A stretch of 41,245 bases of DNA from Candidatus Gastranaerophilales bacterium. GTDB lineage: Bacteria; Cyanobacteriota; Vampirovibrionia; Gastranaerophilales; Gastranaerophilaceae. The position numbers and the translations under genes were made by a program. Location of the stretch: positions 1 through 41,245 of the forward strand of contig CALUQG010000017.1 of NCBI GenBank assembly GCA_944322855.1. Direction: 5' to 3'. Below the pieces are notes generated by a model that was not told where the DNA came from, did not search any database, and was given only the letters and a program-made list of their open reading frames with translations. This document shows positions 4,285-41,245 of the stretch, one piece after another (positions within the stretch are counted from its first letter, which is position 1; each line of letters opens with the position of its first letter).

Positions 4285-5259
4285 TTACTTATCTTTATTA
4301 ATTTTCTCAACTACGCTTTTGGTGATATGCCACATTAAAACCGGTGGTATTGCATTCCCAAGAGCTTTATATTGTGCGGCTTCAGAGCAGACGAGTTTGA
4401 ATGTTTCAGGAAAGGATTGTATCCTTGCGACTTCTCTGGGCAAAAATCTTCTGTAATTTTGACCTATTTTCAAAACAGGATCTGTGCTGTTCAAAGAGAC
4501 TTTTGCCAGATGAGCACCGACAGTATTACAGGGTCTGGTTACATCTTGTTCACGTCCTTTATTCATTTTGGCTCTGGCTCGCTGCATACCTTCTACGGCT
4601 TTTGGGCTAAAATAATATTTTTTATCAATCTTTTTGCTGTCTATTAAAACTTTTTTTAGAGGGACAAATGCTTCTTCATCAAAAACAGGTTCAGGAAAAG
4701 AGTAGTCAAATTTCAGGTCTTTTCTGTACCCGACAATAAATACCCTCTCTCTTTTTTGAGGGACACCGTAATTCGCTGCATTAAACAATTTGTAATGAAC
4801 ATTATAGCCGCATTTTTCAAATTCATTAATAATTAAAGGAAAAGCTTTTCTGTTATTTGCAGACAGAATTCCTTTTACATTTTCAGCAATAAAACACAAA
4901 GGTTTACGCTCTTTTAATATTCTGCACATTTCAAAAAACAACTTGCCTTTTTCATCCTTATAACCAAGGCGCACCGGATTTTGAGCCACTATAGAAAAAG
5001 ATTGACAGGGAAATCCTCCAACAAGTATATCAAAATCAGGAATTTCGTTTGAATGAACTTCTCTTATATCTCTGTTGTCAGGTTTGATTTTAAAATTCTC
5101 TTCATAAATTTTGCAGGCATTTGTCTCTATATCGTTTGCATAAACAATTTCAACAGGGTTTGTATTATAAAATTTATCTAAAAAATAAAAACCGCCTTCA
5201 AGGCCTAAATCACTGCCGCCACATCCGCAAAATAAAGAAGCAACTTTTAATTTTTCCAT
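4285..5259 (-). CDS. DNA (cytosine-5) methyltransferase, R-M operon gene 3
   Basis: This is a 324-aa C5-cytosine methyltransferase that would methylate one strand or context of the recognition site of the operon's nuclease, using S-adenosylmethionine. Motif I is LFCGCGGSDLGL (residues 9-20), the catalytic loop is GGFPCQSFS with Cys85, motif VI is ENVKG (126-130), and motif VIII is QKRERVFIVG (168-177). Motif X (ALGNAIPP) closes the protein. The target-recognition region between motifs VIII and IX is short. The gene start overlaps the end of the nuclease gene by 13 nt, so it is translationally coupled as the last gene of a three-gene operon. It is not a close copy of the other methyltransferase at 6656-7708. 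Confidence 0.93.
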   Translation of the reverse strand: MEKLKVASLFCGCGGSDLGLEGGFYFLDKFYNTNPVEIVYANDIETNACKIYEENFKIKPDNRDIREVHSNEIPDFDILVGGFPCQSFSIVAQNPVRLGYKDEKGKLFFEMCRILKERKPLCFIAENVKGILSANNRKAFPLIINEFEKCGYNVHYKLFNAANYGVPQKRERVFIVGYRKDLKFDYSFPEPVFDEEAFVPLKKVLIDSKKIDKKYYFSPKAVEGMQRARAKMNKGREQDVTRPCNTVGAHLAKVSLNSTDPVLKIGQNYRRFLPREVARIQSFPETFKLVCSEAAQYKALGNAIPPVLMWHITKSVVEKINKDK

Positions 5260-6656
5260 TCCAACAACTCCTCATATCTTCCGCATGTGTTATCACTAAA
5301 AGTTATATCAGCTCCATTTCTCGGTATCATTTTTAGTTTGTCTTTTTTATACAAACCAACCGGATTTTGTATTATAAATAATTTTTTCATATTTTTAGAA
5401 ATTGCAAGTCTGTATACATAATATCTATCTTTGAACGACTCAGCAGCTGACCATTCATTCGGAGTAAGGTGAATTTTCTCAAATTCAACAGGTTTAAGAC
5501 TTATGGTAGTTTTTACTTCAATAAGACGCTGAGTTGCATCTTCTTCTATAGATTTTATATCATAACCGACGCCAAACTGTGTAGGAATACGTTGTATTAA
5601 ATGAACAAGTTCAGGATGACCGGCAAGTTTTATACGCATGCACTCATGACCATGAATAAGAGATTCTCCCCAGTCACCGATTTCTTTAGTCCTAAATTTT
5701 TCTCTTTCAGCGAGTTGATTATCAAGGAGCTCTTTTGATATATTTTTCAGGTTTTCATATTCTTCAACATCTTTTGATACAAATGCAAGAATATCAGTTT
5801 TAAATACATTGTCGTCCAATTTTTGGTTTACATACTCAAACCATTTTTGCTCTAATTCTCTTATATTTTGTATTTCTGCACTTTGTTTTTGAAGAAACTT
5901 ATCATAACCATCAAATGAAGTGTTTGAATTTACAAAATTGTATATAGCAATATCTTCCACATGATTTAAATAAAAAGCATCATTATGAGAAACCAGCAAA
6001 TCCGCTATTTCCATGTAATCAAGAATATCACCTGCATATCTGGTTATATCACCGCCCCAGTCATATTTAATTTTTCTTTCTCTATTTTGTTGTATTGTCT
6101 CCCATGTTTTTGATACATTTTGATGGTCTCTCGTGCATCGAAGATCATTAAATACAATATGCGTGAGCTCTGCCTTGTTTACATAGCAGCGTTTCTTTTC
6201 TTTTTTTTCGGCATAAACAAGTAGTTCGAGAATATATTTAACAGGTTTGAATTTTATACCTGCCTCAATCAACTTTTGATTTTCATGGGGCTTTAAATGA
6301 CCTCCGGGATATTGAAATAAATACAAAAACTTCTTAAATGTCTGAACCAAATCAGAATTATCTGCTAATTCTTTCGCCCTCAAAGAAGCATAAGTACTTG
6401 TCTCATCTTTTTGTACAAAGCCGAACAATGAAGTAATTTCCGTCCGCCAGTTATTGATTGTTTTGAGTTCTTTTATTTGATTTCCCGGATACATTCTGAG
6501 TTTTTCGTTAAAAAGATTTTTAAATTCATCATGCGGTTTATTGCCTAATTCAACAAGCTCAGACGCAATATAAATAAGAACATTTTCAATATCTTTTTTA
6601 AATCTGGGTCTTATATGATGTAATCTAAAATAATATTTTTCAGGTGTTTTATACAT
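5247..6656 (-). CDS. Type II restriction endonuclease, DUF3883 / PD-(D/E)XK type
   Basis: The 469-aa protein sits between two cytosine methyltransferases and is the probable restriction nuclease. Its C-terminal third matches the DUF3883 nuclease-like domain: GDWGESLI (residues 327-334), GYDIKS with Asp366, and IEVKTT with Glu380 and Lys382. These fit the PD-(D/E)XK order of acidic, Asp, Glu-x-Lys residues. LTPNEW (397-402) and YYVYRL (412-417) are further DUF3883 hallmarks. The N-terminal two thirds are helical and charged, with no family I recognise; they may bind the target. Its ATG overlaps the stop of the upstream methyltransferase (TAATG) and its end overlaps the downstream one by 13 nt. 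Nuclease function is inferred from the motif and context. Confidence 0.8.
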   Translation of the reverse strand: MYKTPEKYYFRLHHIRPRFKKDIENVLIYIASELVELGNKPHDEFKNLFNEKLRMYPGNQIKELKTINNWRTEITSLFGFVQKDETSTYASLRAKELADNSDLVQTFKKFLYLFQYPGGHLKPHENQKLIEAGIKFKPVKYILELLVYAEKKEKKRCYVNKAELTHIVFNDLRCTRDHQNVSKTWETIQQNRERKIKYDWGGDITRYAGDILDYMEIADLLVSHNDAFYLNHVEDIAIYNFVNSNTSFDGYDKFLQKQSAEIQNIRELEQKWFEYVNQKLDDNVFKTDILAFVSKDVEEYENLKNISKELLDNQLAEREKFRTKEIGDWGESLIHGHECMRIKLAGHPELVHLIQRIPTQFGVGYDIKSIEEDATQRLIEVKTTISLKPVEFEKIHLTPNEWSAAESFKDRYYVYRLAISKNMKKLFIIQNPVGLYKKDKLKMIPRNGADITFSDNTCGRYEELLEWKN

Positions 6657-7708
6657 TAGTTTTCTTTCATATATTTTTTTATTTCTTCTGCCAGCCTTTG
6701 TGCAAAGACAGGAGGGACTGCGTTGCCTACATGTTTAAACTGTTGTGTCTTTGAACCTAAAAATTCAAAATCATCAGGAAAAGACTGTAATCTCGCAGAT
6801 TCTCTTACCGTAGGAACTCTGTTGTATTTATAGTGAAAATGATGTCTGTGCCCTGTGTCTACCGTAGGAGCCGGCTCATTACCGTTATATCTGGTCCAGG
6901 CGACATGAAAATTTCTCGAATTTCTATATTCATTTGGTAAATCTTTATAATTGCCGCCTTCCGGCACAAGACTTATAATTTTTTTCACTTTATCCGTATG
7001 ATTAGCTGCAATATGATTTTTTACAATTTTAGAATTTTTTCTCATTAATTTCTGATAATTATTCATTGGCTCAGAAATATAATCCTGGTTTTCCGAGCCG
7101 AGAAAATCTTTGTCCAGTGGCGGCAGATCACATAATGCATCCTTACAAGTTATATATCTTTCAGATTTTTTTATACCGGAAAAATCGAATTCAACCCCGT
7201 TATTAAATCCAACAAATATAATCCTTCGTCTTTTTTGCGGTACACCGTAATCAGCAGTGTTAACAATCTCATATGAAACAGTATAGCCGAGTTTTGAAAA
7301 TTCACTCAATATACTGTCTTTTATTTTTCCGCCAAATAAACTCGCCAGCCCCGGAACATTTTCTATAACAAAAATTTTAGGTTTTATCTCCGATACAAGT
7401 CTTATATAAGACAAATAAAGTTTATTTCTTGGGTCACGAAACTTTCTTGGACCGGACAATGACATCCCCTGACATGGCGGCCCTCCAACAATTATATCTA
7501 TTTCCGAAGGATTAATATAATCCTTTAGTGCGTCAGAAGAAAGCTTTGATATATCTGCACAAAGAACATTTGAGCCTTTGTGATTTTTTTGAAATGTTTT
7601 AAGAGCTGTTTCGTCATTGTCAATTCCAAGCACAACATCAAAACCGGCTTGTTGAAACCCGTATGACAAACCTCCGCATCCGCAAAATAAATCAAGCAGT
7701 TTAGGCAT
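6656..7708 (-). CDS. DNA (cytosine-5) methyltransferase, R-M operon gene 1
   Basis: This 350-aa C5-cytosine methyltransferase is the first gene of the R-M operon, so the protective enzyme would be made before the nuclease. Motif I is LDLFCGCGGLSYGF (5-18), motif IV is GGPPCQGMSLSG with Cys79, motif VI is ENVPG (116-120), and motif VIII is PQKRRRIIFVG. The target-recognition segment around NFHVAWTRYNGNEPAPTVDT and the terminal GNAVPP are also present. A GGAGGAAAAA site precedes the ATG at 7708. It differs clearly from the second methyltransferase in catalytic loop (GPPCQGMS versus GFPCQSFS) and recognition region, so the two probably modify different cytosines, for example the two strands of an asymmetric site. 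Confidence 0.94.
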   Translation of the reverse strand: MPKLLDLFCGCGGLSYGFQQAGFDVVLGIDNDETALKTFQKNHKGSNVLCADISKLSSDALKDYINPSEIDIIVGGPPCQGMSLSGPRKFRDPRNKLYLSYIRLVSEIKPKIFVIENVPGLASLFGGKIKDSILSEFSKLGYTVSYEIVNTADYGVPQKRRRIIFVGFNNGVEFDFSGIKKSERYITCKDALCDLPPLDKDFLGSENQDYISEPMNNYQKLMRKNSKIVKNHIAANHTDKVKKIISLVPEGGNYKDLPNEYRNSRNFHVAWTRYNGNEPAPTVDTGHRHHFHYKYNRVPTVRESARLQSFPDDFEFLGSKTQQFKHVGNAVPPVFAQRLAEEIKKYMKEN

Positions 7709-8927: not shown

Positions 8928-9237
8928 TCGGGATACTCTGCCGAGAAAAACAAGACTAAATGTCTTGTTTTACGAGAGGTAGCAGCTTGGTTTTGAAATT
9001 TGACAATTTAATATAAATAAATCTAAAAAAATCGAGATACTCTGCCGAGAAAAACAAGACTAAATGTCTTGTTTTACGAGAGGTAGCAGCTTGGTTCTGA
9101 AATTTGACAATTTAATATAAATAATCTAAATAAATCGGGATACTCTGCCGAGAAAAACAAGACTAAATGTCTTGTTTTACGAGAGGTAGCAGCTTGGTTT
9201 CGAAATTTGACAATTTAATATAAATAATCTAAATAAA
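8928..9237 (+). repeat. Three tandem ~103-bp hairpin units in register with tRNA-Pro
   Basis: Units start at about 8928, 9032 and 9135 (period 104, 103), and the next period falls at 9238, one base before tRNA-Pro. Each unit begins with CGGGAT or CGAGAT, like the tRNA. A hairpin follows with a perfect 10-bp stem (AAAACAAGAC with GTCTTGTTTT, loop TAAAT; 8947-8956 with 8962-8971 in unit 1) flanked by CTGCC and GGTAG. Next comes GTAGCAGCTTGGT, close to the tRNA D-arm GTAGCGCAGCTTGGT, and then a ~40-bp AT-rich spacer containing TTGACA. The copies are nearly identical; single changes sit just after CTTGGTT. I do not recognise a known RNA family. Confidence 0.85.
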
Positions 9238-9238
9238 T

Positions 9239-9312
9239 CGGGATGTAGCGCAGCTTGGTAGCGCACCGTGTTCGGGTCGCGGGGGTCGCAAGTTCGAATC
9301 TTGTCATCCCGA
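9239..9312 (+). tRNA. tRNA-Pro (anticodon CGG)
   Basis: A full 74-nt cloverleaf can be folded: acceptor CGGGATG with CATCCCG (7 of 7 paired), D stem GCGC/GCGC, anticodon stem CCGTG/CGCGG with one G-T pair, loop TTCGGGT with anticodon CGG, T stem GCAAG/CTTGT with loop TTCGAAT, and discriminator A. The CCA end is not encoded. A T-run follows immediately and may terminate transcription. It is preceded in register by three tRNA-like hairpin units, and its last nine bases begin a 73-bp segment that is repeated downstream. Confidence 0.95.
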
Positions 9313-9517
9313 TTTTTTGTGTTTTTACCGGCTGGATGGACAAGATTTCATCTTGCCACAACTCGCAAAAGATTACGCTTACGCTATCTTTTTGCGGTTC
9401 TGATTAGCTATTCGTATCGCTCATTCTTCGCTTACGATAGCCTATCATCCCGATTTTTTGTGTTTTTACCGGCTGGATGGACAAGATTTCATCTTGCCAC
9501 AACTCGCAAAAGATTAC
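9304..9517 (+). repeat. 73-bp direct repeat beginning in the tRNA-Pro 3' end
   Basis: The sequence from 9304 to 9376 recurs unchanged at 9445-9517, an offset of 141 bp. Each copy starts with TCATCCCGA, the tail of tRNA-Pro, and continues through a T-run and the segment ending CAAAAGATTAC. The 68 bp in between contain a terminator-like hairpin (about 9364-9395, CGCAAAAGAT with ATCTTTTTGCG). Only the tRNA tail is duplicated, so this could be an insertion scar or a tandem duplication with later loss. No integrase is nearby. Confidence 0.8.
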
Positions 9518-15863: not shown

Positions 15864-15913
15864 CATTACACAAGCATATACTACATTCTAAAAGTTTTTT
15901 TAAACAAAAAAAA

Positions 15914-15986
15914 TGCGTCTGATGCGATTCGAACGCATGACCTATCCCTTAAAAGGGGAGTGCTCTACCTGCTGAGCTACAGACGC
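15914..15986 (-). tRNA. tRNA-Lys (anticodon TTT)
   Basis: Read on the minus strand, the 73-nt cloverleaf has acceptor GCGTCTG with CAGACGC, D stem GCTC/GAGC, loop CTTTTAA with anticodon TTT, T stem ATGCG/CGCAT with loop TTCGAAT, and discriminator A. The outermost anticodon-stem pair is a C-T mismatch. CCA is not encoded. A poly-T stretch lies downstream. Confidence 0.95.
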
Positions 15987-16098
15987 ATTTTTTATTTAAT
16001 TTTCATTATGTTTCGGTTTGCTTATTTAATGTATCAAGAACATATTTTTGAGTCAACATATTTTTTTTGAAAATTTTCAATTACCCTGCTATACATAT

Positions 16099-38193: not shown

Positions 38194-38228
38194 ATAAAAA
38201 AGCCGGGAGAGAATATCTCCCAGGCTTT
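38194..38228 (-). terminator. Riboswitch-controlled terminator
   Basis: On the minus strand the hairpin AAGCCTGGGAGA / TCTCCCGGCTT is followed by a run of T residues, about 20 bp before the gdx ATG. Its 5' arm is the 3' end of the guanidine aptamer, so ligand binding should block terminator formation. Confidence 0.85.
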
Positions 38229-38306
38229 TATCCTTCCGTGTTCACAAATTTGTGAGTTTTCTCTCGGTCCAGCCCAATTTCTTCCAAAATTACGGAACCC
38301 TAGAAA
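38216..38306 (-). ncRNA. Guanidine-I (ykkC) riboswitch
   Basis: Read on the minus strand, the segment carries the conserved pieces of the ykkC/guanidine-I aptamer in order: CTAGGGTTCCG, GGCTGGTCCGAGAG, ACACGGAAGGATAAAAGCC and GGGAGA. It is followed by the terminator and gdx. When free guanidinium is present it should let transcription continue into gdx. A TATAAT at 38349-38344 lies about 40 bp upstream and may be the promoter's -10. Confidence 0.92.
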
Positions 38307-38443
38307 ACATTGATTATTAAATTTTAAAATATAAATATATTTTATTATAAAAATTGTTTTTTACAATATCAGACAAAATTTTAGCTAAAGTGAAATATAG
38401 CTTGCTACGGCTATTTTTGGTTTATTAACAATCCTATATCAGT

Positions 38444-39866: not shown

Positions 39867-41245
39867 ATGGTTAGATTTTTTGATTTTATAAATACTTCAA
39901 ACAAGGCTCGTAATGCTTACACTGACAGAGTTCCACCTTCCCCGAAATGTTGTATGCCGGTGAAGTCGGGTGTTTTAGCCTCTTTACTGTTTTCTGTCCT
40001 TTTTATTTCTGGTCCTGTTTTTGCTGATGCACCTATTCCGACTCTGGATTCTTTAAAAGGGCAGGAAATTCCTGATTCTGATCCTGTTCAATATTATCCT
40101 GAATCTGCTTATACTTTGACTGAAATCAAAGATGCAGATCCTGAAAATCTGCCATTGAATGCTGTTACGCTGTATGACAAAAACAATGACGGTACAGTCA
40201 CACCAAAGTACTATCTTGTAAACCTCAAAGATTCTGTAACAAATATAGGCACAGGCGATACGACAAAATATTTTGAATGGTCACAAAATTCTGAGGGTAA
40301 ACTCGAACTCAAAGAGGTTTCTGCTCCTACCGAAGGTAAAACAACAATTACCGTAAAATACGATACATCTAACCTTCAATCCAGATTTGAAAACACATCT
40401 GACAATTCATCTAAAGTAACAACAGGCACATTTTTAAACCAGACCACAGGCAGCACATCCGGCAGTCAATATGGCGGAGCGATTTATAATAAAGGCTCTG
40501 CAGCAAAGCTCGGTAATATCAATGCTGATTTTATCGGAAACTATACGACTTCGACTGATGGAGATGCCAGAGGTGGGGCGATTTATAATAGTGGCTCTTC
40601 TGCAAAACTCGGCGATATCACAGGAGATTTTATCGGGAACTATGCTTCCTCCACTAGTTTTTCTGCCTACGGTGGGGCGATTTATAATGGTAATGGAATA
40701 ATCGGCGACATCACAGGTGATTTTATTGGGAACTATGCTTCCTCCACTAGTTCTCATGCCTACGGTGGGGCGATTTTTAATTCTGGAGAAATCGACTGCA
40801 TCACAGGAGATTTTATCGGGAACTATGCGTCAGGTTCTTATGCCTTCGGTGGGGCGATTTATAATACTGGCTCTTCTGCAAAACTCGGCGACATCACAGG
40901 TGATTTTATCGGAAACTATGCGTCGGGTTACTATTCTGCCTACGGTGGGGCGATTTTTAATTCTGGAACAATCGACAGCATCACAGGAGATTTTATTGGG
41001 AACTATGCGACTTCGACTGATGGAGATGCCTCCGGTGGGGCGATTTATAATGAAGGAACAATCGATAATATAACAGGCGATTTTATCGGGAACTATGCTT
41101 CCTCCACTAGTTTTTATGCCTACGGAGGAGCGATTTATAATTATAGTGGAGAAATCGGCAACATCACAGGTGATTTTATCGGTAACTATGCTTCCTCCAC
41201 TGGTACTTATACCTACGGTGGGGCGATTTTTAATTCTGGTGAAAT
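39867..41245 (+). CDS. Large exported repeat protein with Pmp-like GGAI/FxxN repeats (5' part, cut by window end)
   Basis: An open frame without stop runs from 39867 to the window end (459 codons). The start has a long basic N-region (1-33) before a hydrophobic core (VLASLLFSVLFISGPVFA, 36-53), like the extended signal peptides of type V secreted proteins. Residues 54-200 are a soluble lead-in. From residue 203 about eight and a half repeats of 28-34 residues follow, with the plan GGAIYN-x-G-x-I-x-x-ITGDFIGNYA-x(4-9). The GGAI and FxxN tetrads recall chlamydial polymorphic membrane proteins and predict a beta-helix passenger. A C-terminal autotransporter barrel, if present, is outside the window. 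Probable adhesin; function is inferred. Confidence 0.85.
   Translation, partial: MVRFFDFINTSNKARNAYTDRVPPSPKCCMPVKSGVLASLLFSVLFISGPVFADAPIPTLDSLKGQEIPDSDPVQYYPESAYTLTEIKDADPENLPLNAVTLYDKNNDGTVTPKYYLVNLKDSVTNIGTGDTTKYFEWSQNSEGKLELKEVSAPTEGKTTITVKYDTSNLQSRFENTSDNSSKVTTGTFLNQTTGSTSGSQYGGAIYNKGSAAKLGNINADFIGNYTTSTDGDARGGAIYNSGSSAKLGDITGDFIGNYASSTSFSAYGGAIYNGNGIIGDITGDFIGNYASSTSSHAYGGAIFNSGEIDCITGDFIGNYASGSYAFGGAIYNTGSSAKLGDITGDFIGNYASGYYSAYGGAIFNSGTIDSITGDFIGNYATSTDGDASGGAIYNEGTIDNITGDFIGNYASSTSFYAYGGAIYNYSGEIGNITGDFIGNYASSTGTYTYGGAIFNSGE
40473..41245 (+). repeat. Tandem coding repeats (84-102 bp) within the Pmp-like gene
   Basis: Eight complete units and a partial ninth start with GGTGGGGCGATTTATAAT-like DNA and contain ATCACAGG(T/A)GATTTTAT. 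DNA identity is high within the cores, while the linkers vary in length and sequence. Some linkers recur (TCCTCCACTAGT, ACTTCGACTGATGGAGATGCC), pointing to recombination or copying between units. Confidence 0.9.

What the first reader, a model, noticed from the sequence alone, without database searches (positions are those of the whole stretch)
8928..9312. Three hairpin units phased with tRNA-Pro, built from tRNA-like pieces
Three nearly identical ~103-bp units precede tRNA-Pro(CGG) so regularly that the tRNA stands exactly one period after the last unit. Each unit begins with the tRNA's own CGGGAT (CGAGAT in unit 2), inserts a ~44-nt element with a perfect 10-bp stem, then resumes with GTAGCAGCTTGGT, nearly the D-arm of the tRNA, and ends in the same AT spacer that precedes the tRNA, including TTGACA. 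They look like tRNA 5' halves with a hairpin inserted after position 6 and the 3' half lost. They could be an RNA that mimics tRNA-Pro, a precursor-processing array, or copies made by an unknown mobile element that targets tRNA genes. I know of no described family with this layout.
Basis: partly seen in the sequence, partly recalled or inferred. Interest (0 to 1): 0.75.

Follow-up and report, generated by a model that had tools for sequence, protein, structure and literature searches.

The report
Mobile hairpin repeats hugging tRNA genes
The three repeats in front of this tRNA gene are partial copies of the tRNA's own beginning, each carrying a small hairpin-shaped DNA element that occurs next to tRNA genes, and inside other repeats, throughout one family of gut bacteria and appears to spread by swapping itself for a six-letter target word.

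Summary
In detail: three ~103-bp units at 8929-9238 stand in phase with tRNA-Pro(CGG). The conserved part is a 48-nt hairpin, "E" (ACTCTGCCGA-stem/loop-GAGAGGTAG). E is not specific to this locus. It has 24 copies in this genome and occurs in 141 of 146 genomes of the family (Gastranaerophilaceae-type); in the rest of the phylum sample only one genome outside the family had it. Its stem covaries strongly. G-T and A-C mismatches are equally rare, as expected of a DNA palindrome rather than an RNA. In six genomes 70 of 114 copies lie within 600 bp of a tRNA or tmRNA gene (~3% expected), pointing from the gene's end inwards. They sit in tandem partial copies of that gene's own end, beside an intact gene. 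E replaces a GNAGYG-like hexamer (here GTAGCG), and tRNAs with that word in the D arm are the ones that carry it (P=1.7e-24). Copies in one genome resemble each other more than copies at the same tRNA in other genomes. Best reading: a new family of non-autonomous mobile palindromic DNA, tolerated beside tRNA genes because decoy copies absorb it. The mobilising enzyme is unknown. The tRNA-mimic and processing ideas are not supported.

The parts
8929..9032 (+). unit 1: CGGGAT (copy of tRNA-Pro positions 1-6), element E, CAGCTTGG (tRNA D arm), spacer with leader motif
8935..8982 (+). element E copy 1 (48 nt; replaces the hexamer GTAGCG of the tRNA copy)
   Evidence: covariance model R1, 74.6 bits, E=1.2e-15; empty-site comparison
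9033..9135 (+). unit 2 (CGAGAT variant)
9039..9086 (+). element E copy 2
9136..9238 (+). unit 3; its spacer is the leader of the real tRNA gene
9142..9189 (+). element E copy 3
9000..9013 (+). pre-tRNA leader motif TTGACAATTTAATA, copy 1 (further copies at 9104-9117 and 9207-9220)
9239..9312 (+). tRNA-Pro(CGG), intact
   Evidence: ARAGORN 9238-9313; Rfam tRNA 58.4 bits
9245..9250 (+). GTAGCG, the intact target hexamer (GNAGYG) that E replaces in the copies
9304..9517 (+). 3' flank: 141-bp tandem partial copy of the tRNA 3' end (TCATCCCGAT...; exact 73-nt repeats at 9304-9376 and 9445-9517) carrying other hairpin modules and no E

Best explanation
The ~44-48-nt hairpin E is a non-autonomous mobile palindromic DNA element confined, as far as tested, to Gastranaerophilales. 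It enters sites containing GNAGYG (or T-loop forms such as GGAGTCG and GGAATCG) and takes the place of that 6-7-nt word. tRNA and tmRNA genes offer the word in the D arm (sense strand) and the T loop (antisense strand). A replacement in the gene itself would destroy it, so E persists only in tandem, sometimes folded-back, partial copies of the gene's end that lie beside an intact gene. Unequal recombination between unit copies then amplifies unit plus leader in phase with the tRNA, as seen here three times. Shown: hairpin, covariation, target word, tRNA association, orientation rule, within-genome similarity, family-wide range. Inferred: that movement is at the DNA level, that the tRNA copies arise by template switching or tandem duplication, and that selection for an intact tRNA shapes what is seen. 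The enzyme is unknown.
For: Covariation: 94.6% of cells paired versus 78.4% shuffled, 39 double changes versus 10.2, slid controls 33-53%. Dispersal: 24 copies in the own genome, 141/146 family genomes and 34/36 genera. tRNA association: 70/114 within 600 bp; orientation 41 '5' same', 25 '3' opposite', 0 '5' opposite'; the 4 '3' same' cases mostly lie between neighbouring tRNA genes. Filled/empty comparison: 80 of 190 copies have a recognisable empty site, mostly GTAGCG, GGAGTG, GAAGTG, GCAGCG or GGAGTCG. The D-arm word predicts 5' E: 73/91 versus 13/113, P=1.7e-24; among tRNAs of G006 and G173 4/12 versus 1/47, P=0.005. Copies at different targets in one genome are closer (0.334) than copies at the same target in different genomes (0.390), permutation P=0.001. 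E stems: 16 G-T versus 27 A-C against 1704 Watson-Crick pairs; tRNAs from the same loci have about 7% G-T. Partial self-copies flank 8/32 and 15/33 tRNA genes in two genomes.
Against: No excision, circle or new insertion has been observed; one genome per species was available. No transposase tracks with E: Y1_Tnp is absent from this genome and from many E-rich genomes. Replacement of a hexamer with no target-site duplication fits no standard transposition mechanism. The near-invariant ends and the strict orientation could also reflect a function.
Confidence: 0.72

Rival explanations
1. The units are a functional structured RNA in the pre-tRNA leader (tRNA mimic, attenuator or processing signal); E is an RNA arm.
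For: Strong covariation. The tRNA-Leu promoter appears to lie upstream of its array, so 5' units would be in the transcribed leader (read by eye). Some units fold back on the tRNA sequence.
Against: At 3' ends E is antisense to the tRNA and beyond the terminator. G-T and A-C mismatches are about equally rare in E. Copies lie inside unrelated repeats and in a phage contig. Copy number at one tRNA varies between genomes.
Confidence: 0.15
2. Passive repeats: tRNA ends are prone to fold-back template switching and slippage during replication, and E-like hairpins are homogenised by ordinary gene conversion, with no dedicated enzyme.
For: Inverted copies of tRNA ends beside the gene are frequent (21.5% versus 1.5% control at 5', 17.4% versus 1.5% at 3'). 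Arrays with modules other than E show the same layout. A between-target similarity signal is also expected from gene conversion.
Against: E has fixed ends and a fixed target word in unrelated contexts with no flanking homology, which replication slippage does not explain.
Confidence: 0.25
3. E is a REP-type element mobilised by a RAYT (HUH tyrosine transposase).
For: E is a small palindrome that often ends in GTAG (TAG after GAGAGG in 170 of 304 copies), and RAYT-like genes exist in some family members, several of them near E.
Against: No Y1_Tnp match in this genome or in many E-rich ones. The RAYT-like genes appear to carry their own REP (GTAGGTTGGGC...GCCCAAC), and in L285 the gene is inserted into the apex of an E. 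The GTAG of E is on the 3' side and not conserved in all copies.
Confidence: 0.12
4. Assembly artefact.
For: Many contigs end inside such arrays, so copy numbers there are uncertain.
Against: The three units differ from each other (93-97%) and similar arrays occur in metagenome-assembled genomes from many separate projects.
Confidence: 0.02

Closest known systems
REP elements / REPtrons (GTAG- or CGTC-tagged palindromes, RAYT)
   Same: Short palindromic, high-copy, mostly intergenic DNA, often with GTAG at one end; family-specific (PMC3733652).
   Different: E replaces a hexamer at a defined word, sits in tRNA-end copies and in other palindromes, and has no Y1 transposase in this genome.
Mobile GC clusters of yeast mitochondrial DNA (e.g. 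GC42)
   Same: About 40-nt palindromic elements that proliferate, merge and shuffle (PMC4478555).
   Different: Bacterial chromosome, tRNA-end arrays, replacement of a hexamer.
Rickettsia palindromic elements (RPE)
   Same: Hairpin elements inserted into genes; CGTC-tagged at one end in R. conorii (PMC3733652). Insertion into RNA genes is from my own knowledge.
   Different: Much shorter here; in partial tRNA copies beside an intact gene; no sequence relation was tested.
E. coli tyrT / rtT RNA repeats (from memory)
   Same: Tandem ~180-bp units after a tRNA gene, each containing a piece of the tRNA end.
   Different: No Rfam match to RtT; here mostly 5' units with a dispersed hairpin replacing a hexamer, at many tRNAs.

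Membership tests
REP / RAYT system | small palindromic repeat, dispersed in many copies | tested here: met
REP / RAYT system | GTAG tag at one end | tested here: inconclusive
   TAG follows GAGAGG in 170 of 304 copies; it is on the 3' side of the hairpin, and outside tRNAs it is often GGA, GAA or TAA
REP / RAYT system | cognate Y1 (RAYT) transposase gene in the genome | tested here: not met
   PF01797 absent from G000 and from 20 of 28 genomes searched
E. coli rtT RNA (Rfam) | match to the Rfam model | tested here: not met
   cmscan at E up to 10 finds only tRNA as a credible match
tRNA-like or tRNA-mimic RNA family | structure conserved at RNA level on one strand (G-U pairs tolerated, A-C not) | tested here: not met
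   G-T 16, A-C 27 of about 1750 stem pairs; tRNAs about 7% G-T
MITE / DNA transposon | terminal inverted repeats with target-site duplication | tested here: not met
   filled/empty comparison shows replacement of 6-7 nt, with no duplication outside tRNA arrays
CRISPR array | repeats separated by different spacers | tested here: not met
   spacers within an array are nearly the same and match the tRNA leader

The most novel reading that the evidence does not exclude
A dedicated, undescribed recombination system in Gastranaerophilales recognises GNAGYG in folded single-stranded DNA (tRNA ends, tmRNA, other palindromes) and exchanges the word for a hairpin cassette, producing fold-back decoy copies of tRNA ends that protect the gene. 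This would be a swap-type mobile element with no target-site duplication.
Probability: 0.3. Interest if true: 0.85.

Novelty: new variant of a known kind. Interest (0 to 1): 0.62.

Why it matters
A hairpin element with near-invariant ends is present in nearly every sampled genome of a common gut lineage, has no credible Rfam match, and follows a clear rule: it replaces a defined word in copies of tRNA ends, with fixed orientation. It makes testable how tiny palindromic DNA without its own enzyme spreads, and why tRNA genes in these bacteria are wrapped in decoy copies of themselves. It also explains many contig breaks in assemblies of this group and gives a covariance model for annotating it.

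Tried and rejected
(1) tRNA-Pro-specific mimic: rejected, because E occurs at many tRNAs, at tmRNA and elsewhere. (2) TTGACA as a promoter repeated in each unit: rejected, because the spacing is wrong, the same motif precedes tRNAs without arrays, and the promoter scan is at chance. (3) RAYT/REP: Y1_Tnp does not track with E; the link in L285 looks like insertion of a RAYT-like unit into E. (4) Kink-turn: the GA/GA positions flanking a covarying pair suggested one, but the loop geometry does not fit a canonical kink-turn and the lack of G-U bias argues for DNA. (5) Fold-back layout as a universal rule: clear only in a minority of E units (longest-helix test close to background); many units are plain tandem copies. 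(6) Phage carriage: the viral scan gave one credible copy (L205, 55.7 bits); the other hits score 27 bits or less. (7) Literature searches for such repeats in Melainabacteria/Gastranaerophilales found nothing relevant. (9) A first attempt at a tRNA G-T control failed to parse and was repeated.

Full report
Observation. The three units at 8929-9238 are real. Start-to-start spacing is 104 and 103 bp, identity 93-97%, and the intact tRNA-Pro(CGG) at 9239-9312 begins 103 bp after unit 3. Each unit is CGGGAT (tRNA positions 1-6; CGAGAT in unit 2), then a 48-nt element, then CAGCTTGG (tRNA D arm), then a spacer nearly equal to the sequence that precedes the tRNA.

The element. A DNA search with one unit showed that only the 48-nt hairpin is dispersed. 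From 22 distinct copies I built a covariance model. The stem covaries strongly: 94.6% of cells paired against 78.4% in shuffles, 39 double changes against 10.2, slid controls 33-53%. The ends ACTCTGCCGA and GAGAGG are nearly invariant among the copies collected (the collecting pattern allowed one mismatch in each, so this is partly by construction). The model finds 24 copies in this genome and copies in 141 of 146 family genomes and 34 of 36 genera. In a phylum sample only the family and one genome of a sister family (G040) score. No credible Rfam family other than tRNA matches.

Where it sits. In six genomes 70 of 114 copies lie within 600 bp of a tRNA or tmRNA gene, against roughly 3% expected from about 42 tRNAs (counted), 15 more end at a contig edge and 29 are elsewhere. 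Orientation at the gene is strict: same strand at 5' ends (41, none opposite), opposite strand at 3' ends (25; the 4 exceptions mostly lie between neighbouring tRNA genes). So E points from the gene's end inwards. The copies lie in tandem partial copies of that same gene end, next to an intact gene. In tRNAs sampled from two genomes, 8 of 32 and 15 of 33 are flanked by partial copies of themselves, some with other modules than E; the sample mixes regions around E with regions around tRNAs from the Rfam search. The 3' flank of the window's tRNA-Pro is such a case (9304-9517).

Target. Comparing filled with empty sites, E stands in place of a 6-7-nt word, mostly GTAGCG, GCAGCG, GGAGTG, GAAGTG or GGAGTCG, that is GNAGYG and T-loop forms. 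tRNAs with GNAGYG in the D arm carry E at the 5' side far more often: 73/91 versus 13/113, P=1.7e-24; in the two-genome set 4/12 versus 1/47, P=0.005. The first figure comes from loci mostly fetched because they hold E, so the second is the fairer one. The same replacement is seen in a second dispersed repeat ('B'), where copies with and without E exist at two sites, with no duplication of flanks. Duplication is therefore a feature of the tRNA setting, not of E insertion as such (inference).

DNA or RNA. In E stems G-T (16) and A-C (27) mismatches are about equally rare against 1704 Watson-Crick pairs, whereas tRNAs from the same loci have about 7% G-T (the program that drew those stems does not admit A-C, so only the G-T figure is comparable). 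With the antisense position at 3' ends this argues for selection on, or recent spread of, a DNA palindrome.

Mobility. Inner hairpins recur in different contexts (31 of 146 in two or more; some of these contexts are near-identical variants of one site). Within a genome, copies at different targets are closer (0.334) than copies at the same target in other genomes (0.390, equal to background), permutation P=0.001. This is what spread within genomes predicts, though gene conversion would look alike. One phage contig carries a credible copy between structural genes (L205).

Fold-back. Some units continue, after a short loop, with the reverse complement of the tRNA end, including the complement of the replaced word (L020, L053, L094 and L149; L026, L032 and L085 read by eye). 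Inverted copies of a tRNA's 5' end upstream of it occur in 21.5% against 1.5% in cross-tRNA controls, and 17.4% against 1.5% at 3' ends (loci chosen for E, so not a genome-wide rate). The pattern resembles template switching at a hairpin, but only a minority of E units show it.

Leader. TTGACA in the spacers belongs to a motif TGAMAANTNAATA that precedes tRNAs with or without arrays, including tRNA-Lys(TTT) in this window. For tRNA-Leu a conserved promoter-like stretch lies upstream of the whole array (by eye). 5' arrays therefore probably lie in the transcribed leader.

Verdict. A new, family-wide, probably mobile palindromic DNA element with a defined target word. Its enzyme is unknown; Y1/RAYT genes do not track with it and one is inserted into an E. 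The tRNA-mimic reading is not supported.

Noticed in passing
L084, L111, L131, L137, L155 and others: A second dispersed repeat of about 240-500 bp (TGTCTGAGGCGGCCTCGCTTGTAG...GTCGGAGTCAGTTGACAATATGAAA) with several optional nested hairpin modules, E at two of them; no Rfam match in the loci scanned.
   Followed up: partly
window 9304-9517; L005, L026, L027, L051: Other tRNA genes (Leu, Phe, Gly, Asp; 3' side of Pro) carry the same kind of tandem self-copies with modules different from E.
   Followed up: partly
L285 around 1357-2088; L284: A RAYT-like transposase gene flanked by palindromes (GTAGGTTGGG...) is inserted into the apex of an E; in L284 such a gene lies among B repeats.
   Followed up: partly
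L205 3445-3493: E in an intergenic gap between structural genes of a phage-like contig, next to another palindromic module.
   Followed up: no
L070 1501-1548: E inside or at the 3' end of a 160-aa reading frame that resembles DUF2924, just before a reading frame that resembles a large serine recombinase (both recognised by eye, not searched).
   Followed up: no
window 5247-7708: BpuJI-type restriction endonuclease next to a C5-cytosine methylase, about 1.2 kb from the array.
   Followed up: no
window 38215-38314 (-): Guanidine-I riboswitch, 88 bits.
   Followed up: no
window 40600-41234: About 7 imperfect 93-bp tandem repeats.
   Followed up: no
upstream of tRNA genes, e.g. window 15913-15987 (-): Conserved pre-tRNA leader motif TGAMAANTNAATA mostly within 18 nt of the tRNA start.
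   Followed up: partly
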